From Candidatus Magnetocorallium paracelense (lineage in GTDB: Bacteria; Nitrospirota; Thermodesulfovibrionia; Thermodesulfovibrionales; Magnetobacteriaceae): DNA of 59,399 bases. The translations under genes and the position numbers were made by a program. The stretch's first letter is position 1, and every line of letters begins with the position of its first letter. Below the pieces are notes generated by a model. The model did not search any database. It was not told the origin of the DNA and was given only the letters and a program-made list of their open reading frames with translations. Positions 31,440 through 32,917 of this stretch are shown piece by piece. Location: NCBI GenBank assembly GCA_029001845.1, contig JAREWP010000042.1, positions 1 to 59,399 of the forward strand, in the 5' to 3' direction.

Positions 31440-32360
31440 TTATATGTCTTCAACCAAAGATTTAAGTGAATAGGTGTCGTCGAGTCCTGAGATTTTTATT
31501 GGCCTCTTTTCTCTTTTTGCGTTGAAATGGCTCTTGAATTTCATGGAATATTTACTAACAAACCCCTTTGTTCCTATTACAGCGCTGTCGCTGAAATGTC
31601 TTGTCCTGTATCTTAAACGACCTGTTGTTGTCGGGATGTAATCGTCTTTTTCATTAAATTCATTGTTATAGATAAACTCTCCTTCTTCTGAATTTATTGC
31701 ACCTTTCTCATATACATACTCGATATATGCCTCTATCCTCTCCTTCTCGTTCATCTTCTTATACTCGCTAATTCCGAAATCGGATGAAAGAAAATTCTCT
31801 TTGCCTTTATTTTGCACGCGATATCCGAGACTGCTCCACCTGTAGTCCTCCGGTTTGTCAACTATTTTAGCCCTTAGGGGATTCAAATCTATATAGGCAA
31901 GGCAATTTACCAGGGTTTCTCCTTCTTCCACTATTACACTCTTAAACCTTTCTGCCCAGAAATACCCTTTTCTTTTGTGCTTCTTATTGTAATACCTTGA
32001 AAACCTCTGCTTGATATCCTTAATATAGGCTGAAAGGTTACTCAGTCTGCTTTTCAGTTTAAACAAGCGAACTTTGGTTAACTGTCCCTCTTTTCCTTTA
32101 TAATACCTTTCCAGTCTCTCTCTCGCTTCTTCGGAGCTGCATTTTTGGGATGACTTCATCTTTACAAGCAAATGGAAATGGTCTCCCATAACGCAATAGC
32201 CATAGACATCCGTAAAAAACACCGAACTCATCCACGTTATCAAATCGACAAGGAACTCCTTCTCGATGTCCCCAAGTACAAACCCTTCAAGGGCGGTTCT
32301 TGTTATAACATGATAAACCACCTCCTCCTCTTCAACCAGCAATCGAGAAGTCCTCGCCAT
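31440..32360 (-). CDS. REP-associated tyrosine transposase (RAYT, IS200-like Y1 fold)
   Basis: A 306-aa single-strand HUH transposase of the RAYT group. GDHFHLLVKM near residue 59 gives the HxH metal pair, and the helix SRYYNKKHKRKGYFW around 115-130 holds the catalytic tyrosine. The motif ERFKSVIVEEGETLVNCL then leads into YIDLNPLRAKIV and YRWSSLGY, which are typical of this family. RAYTs are domesticated relatives of IS200/IS605 that act on short palindromes. The window contains several families of intergenic palindromes, one 700 bp away, which it might recognise. The last about 100 residues are extra compared with small RAYTs. Its own flanks show no clear terminal hairpins. Confidence 0.85.
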   Translation of the reverse strand: MARTSRLLVEEEEVVYHVITRTALEGFVLGDIEKEFLVDLITWMSSVFFTDVYGYCVMGDHFHLLVKMKSSQKCSSEEARERLERYYKGKEGQLTKVRLFKLKSRLSNLSAYIKDIKQRFSRYYNKKHKRKGYFWAERFKSVIVEEGETLVNCLAYIDLNPLRAKIVDKPEDYRWSSLGYRVQNKGKENFLSSDFGISEYKKMNEKERIEAYIEYVYEKGAINSEEGEFIYNNEFNEKDDYIPTTTGRLRYRTRHFSDSAVIGTKGFVSKYSMKFKSHFNAKREKRPIKISGLDDTYSLKSLVEDI

Positions 32361-32469: not shown

Positions 32470-32499
32470 TTGTTAATATTGCAATAGAACTGTTATAAT
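32470..32499 (+). promoter_or_regulatory. Promoter of the ArsC-like selenoprotein gene
   Basis: TTGTTA (32470-32475), 18 nt, TATAAT (32494-32499). The -10 box is perfect. It lies about 70 nt before the ATG at 32567, which has an AGGAGA ribosome site. Confidence 0.45.
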
Positions 32500-32566
32500 C
32501 TAAAATTTAATTAGCATTTGAAGTCTCTTTAGCAATTATCCAATTCATTTTTATAGGAGAGCCAAG

Positions 32567-32917
32567 ATGAATAATATCACAATCTATCACAATCCCAGGT
32601 GAAAAAAGAGCAGAGAATCCGTGCAGATTCTAAAAGACAGAGGAGTCGATGTCCAAATCATCGATTACATGAAAAATCCTCTTAATGAAGAGGAGTTGAG
32701 AGAAATCTCCGAGAAGCTGAAACTGCCTCCTGGTGAGTTTATCAGGAGAAAGGAAAAAATATTTAAAGAGCTTGCTCTTAAAGAAAAGTTAGATAACGAT
32801 AATGAGTTATTCAGGCAGATGGCAGAACATCCGAGACTTATCGATCGTCCGATCGTAGTGAGTGGAAATAAAGCTATTCTTTGTAAGCCTCCTGAAAAAA
32901 TTCTTGAAATATTGTAG
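32567..32917 (+). CDS. ArsC/YfgD-like thioredoxin-fold reductase, probable selenoprotein (TGA12 = Sec)
   Basis: From ATG 32567, behind AGGAGA, the frame reads MNNITIYHNPR, then TGA (32600-32602), then KKSRESVQILKDRG and on to a stop at 32915, for 116 residues, the usual ArsC/YfgD length. The family signature is NPRCSKSRE, so TGA replaces exactly the catalytic cysteine. The C-terminal MAEHPRLIDRPIVV and the following NKAILCKPPE block fit the family closely. A 6-bp hairpin with a CGUGCA loop begins just after the TGA, as expected for a bacterial SECIS. I read residue 12 as selenocysteine. Alternatives are a sequencing error or a nonsense mutation; an internal GTG-started 98-aa protein would lack the active site. 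No sel genes are in the window, so the machinery is not shown. Confidence 0.75.
32614..32631 (+). promoter_or_regulatory. SECIS-like hairpin after in-frame TGA
   Basis: AGAATC (32614-32619), loop CGTGCA (32620-32625), GATTCT (32626-32631): a perfect 6-bp stem. The loop begins 17 nt after the TGA, the same spacing as the apical loop in E. coli fdhF, and contains GU, the SelB-contacted bases in known bacterial SECIS elements. Function is inferred. Confidence 0.55.

What the first reader, a model, noticed from the sequence alone, without database searches (positions are those of the whole stretch)
32567..32917. ArsC/YfgD-like gene with TGA at the catalytic cysteine: probable new-context selenoprotein
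Seen: the frame MNNITIYHNPR-TGA-KKSRE matches the family NPRCSKSRE with TGA exactly at the Cys, and the rest of the protein is intact with the expected length. It has its own promoter and ribosome site. A perfect 6-bp hairpin with a GU-containing loop starts 17 nt after the TGA, the spacing of known bacterial SECIS elements. Inference: Sec12 replaces the thiol and should raise reactivity. An annotation pipeline would start this gene at the internal GTG at 32623 and lose the active site.
Basis: partly seen in the sequence, partly recalled or inferred. Interest (0 to 1): 0.88.

Follow-up and report, generated by a model that had tools for sequence, protein, structure and literature searches.

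The report
Selenocysteine arsenate-reductase-like gene (ArsC family)

Summary
Window 32567-32917 encodes a full 116-residue ArsC-family protein that passes the curated TIGR00014 cut-off. One in-frame TGA (32600-32602) sits at the catalytic cysteine, residue 12. The genome has tRNA-Sec, SelA, SelB and a SelD whose own gene carries an in-frame TGA. In another phylum (Neomarinimicrobiota), 70 of 100 genomes with a match have a TGA-containing hit; 56 were read and have it at this codon. In the window's own phylum the other close matches are cysteine forms. A 6-bp hairpin (32614-32631), loop CGUGCA, follows the TGA; it is kept in 36 of 57 selenocysteine forms, with compensatory base changes and an invariant loop GU, and mostly not in 53 cysteine forms. 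Decay, sequencing error and chance are effectively excluded. The selenoprotein interpretation is supported; novelty mostly is not: selenocysteine arsenate reductase (motif UxxS) was described from the Sargasso Sea in 2005 and is listed in later reviews. New here is one member in an unrelated phylum, the only ArsC of this family found in its genome, closest to Neomarinimicrobiota forms. That suggests, without proving, horizontal transfer. Incorporation and substrate have not been shown.

The parts
32567..32917 (+). Selenocysteine-containing ArsC-family (arsenate reductase, glutaredoxin-type) gene; Sec at residue 12
   Evidence: full-length match to TIGR00014 and PF03960; relatives with TGA at the same codon
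32600..32602 (+). In-frame TGA codon read as selenocysteine, at the catalytic cysteine position (UxxS motif)
   Evidence: Cys (TGC/TGT) in 53 aligned homologues and TGA in 56 others
32614..32631 (+). bSECIS hairpin: 6-bp stem AGAAUC/GAUUCU, loop CGUGCA with G and U at loop positions 2 and 3; 17 nt from UGA to the apical loop
   Evidence: 97.6% of cells paired, 24 two-sided changes, 0 of 500 shuffles as high
32470..32499 (+). Promoter-like TTGTTA - 18 nt - TATAAT
   Evidence: consensus match only
32555..32559 (+). Ribosome-binding-site-like AGGAG shortly upstream of the ATG (position approximate)
   Evidence: read from the sequence

Best explanation
The gene is a functional bacterial selenoprotein of the ArsC (glutaredoxin-type arsenate reductase) family. 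During translation, SelB bound to Sec-tRNA(Sec) recognises the hairpin just downstream of the UGA (stem 32614-32631, GU in the loop) and selenocysteine is inserted at residue 12, giving a full 116-residue protein. Sec12 takes the place of the nucleophilic cysteine that attacks arsenate, or a similar oxidised substrate, and would be resolved by glutathione/glutaredoxin. The coding signals and the selenocysteine machinery are shown by sequence. The incorporation itself, the reaction and the substrate are inferred from the family.
For: A tRNA-Sec (74.6 bits, anticodon TCA) is present, with SelB over cut-off, SelA over cut-off and SelD with its own in-frame TGA (TCG-U). The full-length family match has TGA exactly at the catalytic Cys. 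One search lists 70 genomes of the Neomarinimicrobiota phylum with a TGA-containing hit and about 15 with a strong uninterrupted hit; 57 Sec rows, window included, were read and all have TGA at this codon. The SECIS hairpin is kept with compensatory changes (UA:12 vs GC:23 at one pair, GC:9 vs AU:24 at another), 97.6% of cells paired against 31-56% when slid by 1-3 columns. Cys homologues keep on average 2.8 of 6 pairs against 5.0 in Sec homologues. All 36 Sec sequences with the stem have GU at loop positions 2-3, and the 17-nt UGA-to-loop distance lies in the published 16-37 nt range (PMC10778597). Downstream codons show purifying selection: pN 0.25 against pS 0.75 versus L009. Arg60 and Arg94 of ArsC are kept.
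Against: There is no expression or protein evidence. The isolated fold of the window's hairpin is only average in stability for its composition. Residue 107, Arg in the classical ArsC triad and in the homologues printed, is Lys here. No arsenic genes lie beside it in the stretch examined.
Confidence: 0.95

Rival explanations
1. The gene is decaying: the TGA is a nonsense mutation in a former Cys arsenate reductase.
For: A REP-transposase-like ORF lies directly upstream, and no sampled relative in the same family carries the gene.
Against: TGA sits at the same codon in 56 other genomes read here; there is no other stop or frameshift; purifying selection downstream; the SECIS covaries; the full Sec machinery is present.
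Confidence: 0.01
2. The real product starts at the internal GTG 32621 and lacks the active site (a short ORF as a pipeline would call it).
For: A mechanical ORF of 98 aa exists from GTG 32621.
Against: The conserved N-terminal part MNNITIYHNPRU is in frame behind a ribosome-site-like AGGAG and matches the family from the start; that GTG lies in the loop of the SECIS hairpin and is conserved in Sec forms.
Confidence: 0.02
3. It is a selenoprotein, but its function is not arsenate reduction; it acts as another kind of selenol-dependent reductase (as may be true of YfgD-like ArsC homologues).
For: No ars genes adjacent in the stretch examined; the family name rests on homology; residue 107 is Lys instead of Arg.
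Against: It passes the TIGR00014 equivalog cut-off and keeps Arg60 and Arg94.
Confidence: 0.35

Closest known systems
Selenocysteine arsenate reductase (COG1393/TIGR00014, motif UxxS), Sargasso Sea and GOS selenoproteomes (PMC1088965, PMC2398784; table entry in PMC13188914)
   Same: Same protein family, same UxxS motif with Sec at the catalytic cysteine, bSECIS hairpin directly downstream
   Different: Only the host: a member of a phylum in which the other close ArsC matches are cysteine forms
Cys-type glutaredoxin arsenate reductase ArsC (R773 ArsC, PDB 1jzw, 1i9d; YfgD-like 3f0i, 3rdw)
   Same: Full-length homology; positions 12, 60, 94
   Different: Sec instead of Cys at 12; Lys instead of Arg at 107
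ArsC-related selenoprotein NF041106 (UxxC)
   Same: ArsC superfamily with Sec at the catalytic position
   Different: The window protein does not hit NF041106 at E up to 1 and has Ser, not Cys, in the U-x-x-S motif

Membership tests
Selenocysteine arsenate reductase (TIGR00014, UxxS) | Full-length ArsC protein over the family cut-off | tested here: met
   127.5 bits against 106.05, positions 1-114 of 114
Selenocysteine arsenate reductase (TIGR00014, UxxS) | In-frame TGA at the catalytic Cys, followed by xxS | tested here: met
   NPR-U-KKS
Selenocysteine arsenate reductase (TIGR00014, UxxS) | bSECIS hairpin downstream with a G in a small apical loop | tested here: met
   criteria from PMC1088965 and PMC10778597
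Bacterial selenocysteine-decoding trait | selA, selB, selC, selD in the genome | tested here: met
Selenocysteine arsenate reductase (TIGR00014, UxxS) | Selenium in the purified protein | not testable with these tools
   needs 75Se labelling or mass spectrometry
Glutaredoxin-type ArsC enzyme | Catalytic Cys12 (or Sec) with Arg60, Arg94, Arg107 | tested here: inconclusive
   Sec12, Arg60, Arg94 present; Lys at 107
Glutaredoxin-type ArsC enzyme | Arsenate reduction | not testable with these tools
   enzyme assay needed

The most novel reading that the evidence does not exclude
A selenoprotein gene with its working SECIS element crossed between phyla, from a Neomarinimicrobiota-like donor to the window's lineage, and was kept as Sec because the recipient family already decodes selenocysteine. 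The protein is nearest to Neomarinimicrobiota Sec forms (60% identity to L009, next to L072 in the tree), no sampled relative in its family has it, and 14 of 19 genomes of that family have selA. The AU test does not formally reject grouping with the own-phylum Cys forms (p = 0.127).
Probability: 0.6. Interest if true: 0.4.

Novelty: new member of a known kind. Interest (0 to 1): 0.3.

Why it matters
It is a clean, well-supported selenoprotein gene that gene callers would truncate at the internal GTG, removing the active site. The set of 57 Sec and 53 Cys relatives shows base by base how the SECIS hairpin is kept where Sec is used and mostly not where Cys is used, and it gives a likely case of a selenoprotein gene moving between phyla. 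It does not add a new family.

Tried and rejected
Rfam gave no relevant RNA family here at E up to 5. The viral contigs hold no relative found by this search. The fold of the single hairpin was not significant by shuffling, so single-sequence folding was dropped in favour of covariation. The HD-domain neighbour was useless for testing the contig's origin because of many paralogues; ispE was used instead and gave its best hits in the same family, against contamination. The AU test for horizontal transfer was not decisive. The organism could not be named with the tools. Pseudogene decay, sequencing error and the internal-GTG start were considered and rejected (see rivals). No structure prediction was run, because the fold and the place of residue 12 are already clear from solved homologues.

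Full report
What is there. Window 32567-32917 (+) is a frame of 116 codons interrupted only by TGA at 32600-32602. With TGA read as selenocysteine the protein passes the NCBIfam equivalog cut-off for arsenate reductase (glutaredoxin), TIGR00014, over the whole model, and Pfam ArsC. It aligns from end to end with solved ArsC structures such as 3f0i and 3rdw, the TGA facing the catalytic cysteine.

Machinery. The genome (6.0 Mb, 99.6% complete, 0.57% contamination) has tRNA-Sec (ARAGORN gives anticodon TCA), SelB, SelA and SelD. The selD gene itself has an in-frame TGA (TCG-U-AAKLGP), so this cell has at least one other selenoprotein gene. The contig is unlikely to be a contaminant: its ispE has its best relatives in the genome's own family.

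Relatives. In the window's phylum, 153 of 396 genomes have a match; apart from the window and two distant ArsC-related hits, the matches listed have no internal stop, and the 29 taken as loci have Cys. None of the 18 sampled family members has the gene, although selA is common in the family (14 of 19 genomes). The nearest relative from named genomes is a Neomarinimicrobiota genome (L009, 60% identity) with TGA at the same codon, itself with tRNA-Sec. In that phylum 100 of 245 genomes match, and by my count of the list 70 have a TGA-containing hit. Reading 57 Sec and 53 Cys sequences gave a tree with few changes between the two states (5 against 36.8 in shuffles), the window beside L072, a Sec form, with support 87.

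SECIS. In 36 of 57 Sec sequences the stem at offsets 14-19/26-31 from the TGA has five or six pairs, and all 36 have G and U at loop positions 2 and 3. On 35 of them (one holding an N was left out), 97.6% of cells pair, with 24 two-sided changes; no shuffle of 500 reached this, and sliding the partner drops pairing to 31-56%. These sequences were picked because they pair, which inflates these measures. The unselected contrast is that Sec forms as a whole average 5.0 of 6 pairs and Cys forms 2.8; 31 of 57 Sec forms and 2 of 53 Cys forms keep all six. The other 21 Sec sequences must use a different hairpin. The geometry fits published bacterial SECIS features: a small apical loop with a guanosine (PMC1088965), a 5/6-bp apical hairpin with an invariant loop G (PMC4607533) and 16-37 nt from UGA to the loop (PMC10778597).

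How it works. Shown: coding signals, machinery, conservation. Inferred from established knowledge of SelB and ArsC: SelB brings Sec-tRNA to the UGA by binding the hairpin, Sec12 acts as the nucleophile of ArsC, and glutathione/glutaredoxin resolves the product. Arg60 and Arg94 are kept; position 107 is Lys. No arsenic genes were seen among the neighbours examined (ClpB-like ATPase, NrdG-like activase, FHA protein, CinA-like protein, REP-transposase-like ORF, HD-domain protein, TPR protein). The rest of the genome was not searched for arsenic genes.

What is known. Arsenate reductase with Sec (UxxS) was reported as a new selenoprotein family in the Sargasso Sea in 2005 (14 sequences, PMC1088965), again in the Global Ocean Sampling data (77 sequences, PMC2398784), and stands in the 2022 and 2026 reviews (PMC9312934, PMC13188914). 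The finding is therefore a new member of a known kind. The unusual part is its host lineage, consistent with horizontal transfer but not proved (AU p = 0.127).

Noticed in passing
L101 (G064:C133:1200-3600) and L102 (G073:C187:14500-16900): Two genomes of another family of the same phylum carry an ArsC-related/Spx-like protein with TGA at the catalytic-Cys position (KST-U-NA[S/C]RR); their genomes have selA. It scores below the NF041106 cut-off (25.5 of 85 bits), so it may be a distinct Sec ArsC-related protein.
   Followed up: partly
L088, L091, L094, L105, L107, L109, L110, L112-L114, L116, L117, L124, L125, L127, L129, L138: These Neomarinimicrobiota Sec-ArsC genes lack the common hairpin at its usual place; they must use another SECIS shape.
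   Followed up: no
window 31440-32360 (-): REP-associated tyrosine transposase-like ORF directly upstream, 65.6 bits against a cut-off of 80.
   Followed up: no
G000:C50:17721-18650 (L103): The genome's selD carries an in-frame TGA in TCG-U: a selenoprotein SelD.
   Followed up: yes
window 32885-32887 (residue 107): Lys replaces the Arg107 found in the ArsC homologues printed.
   Followed up: no
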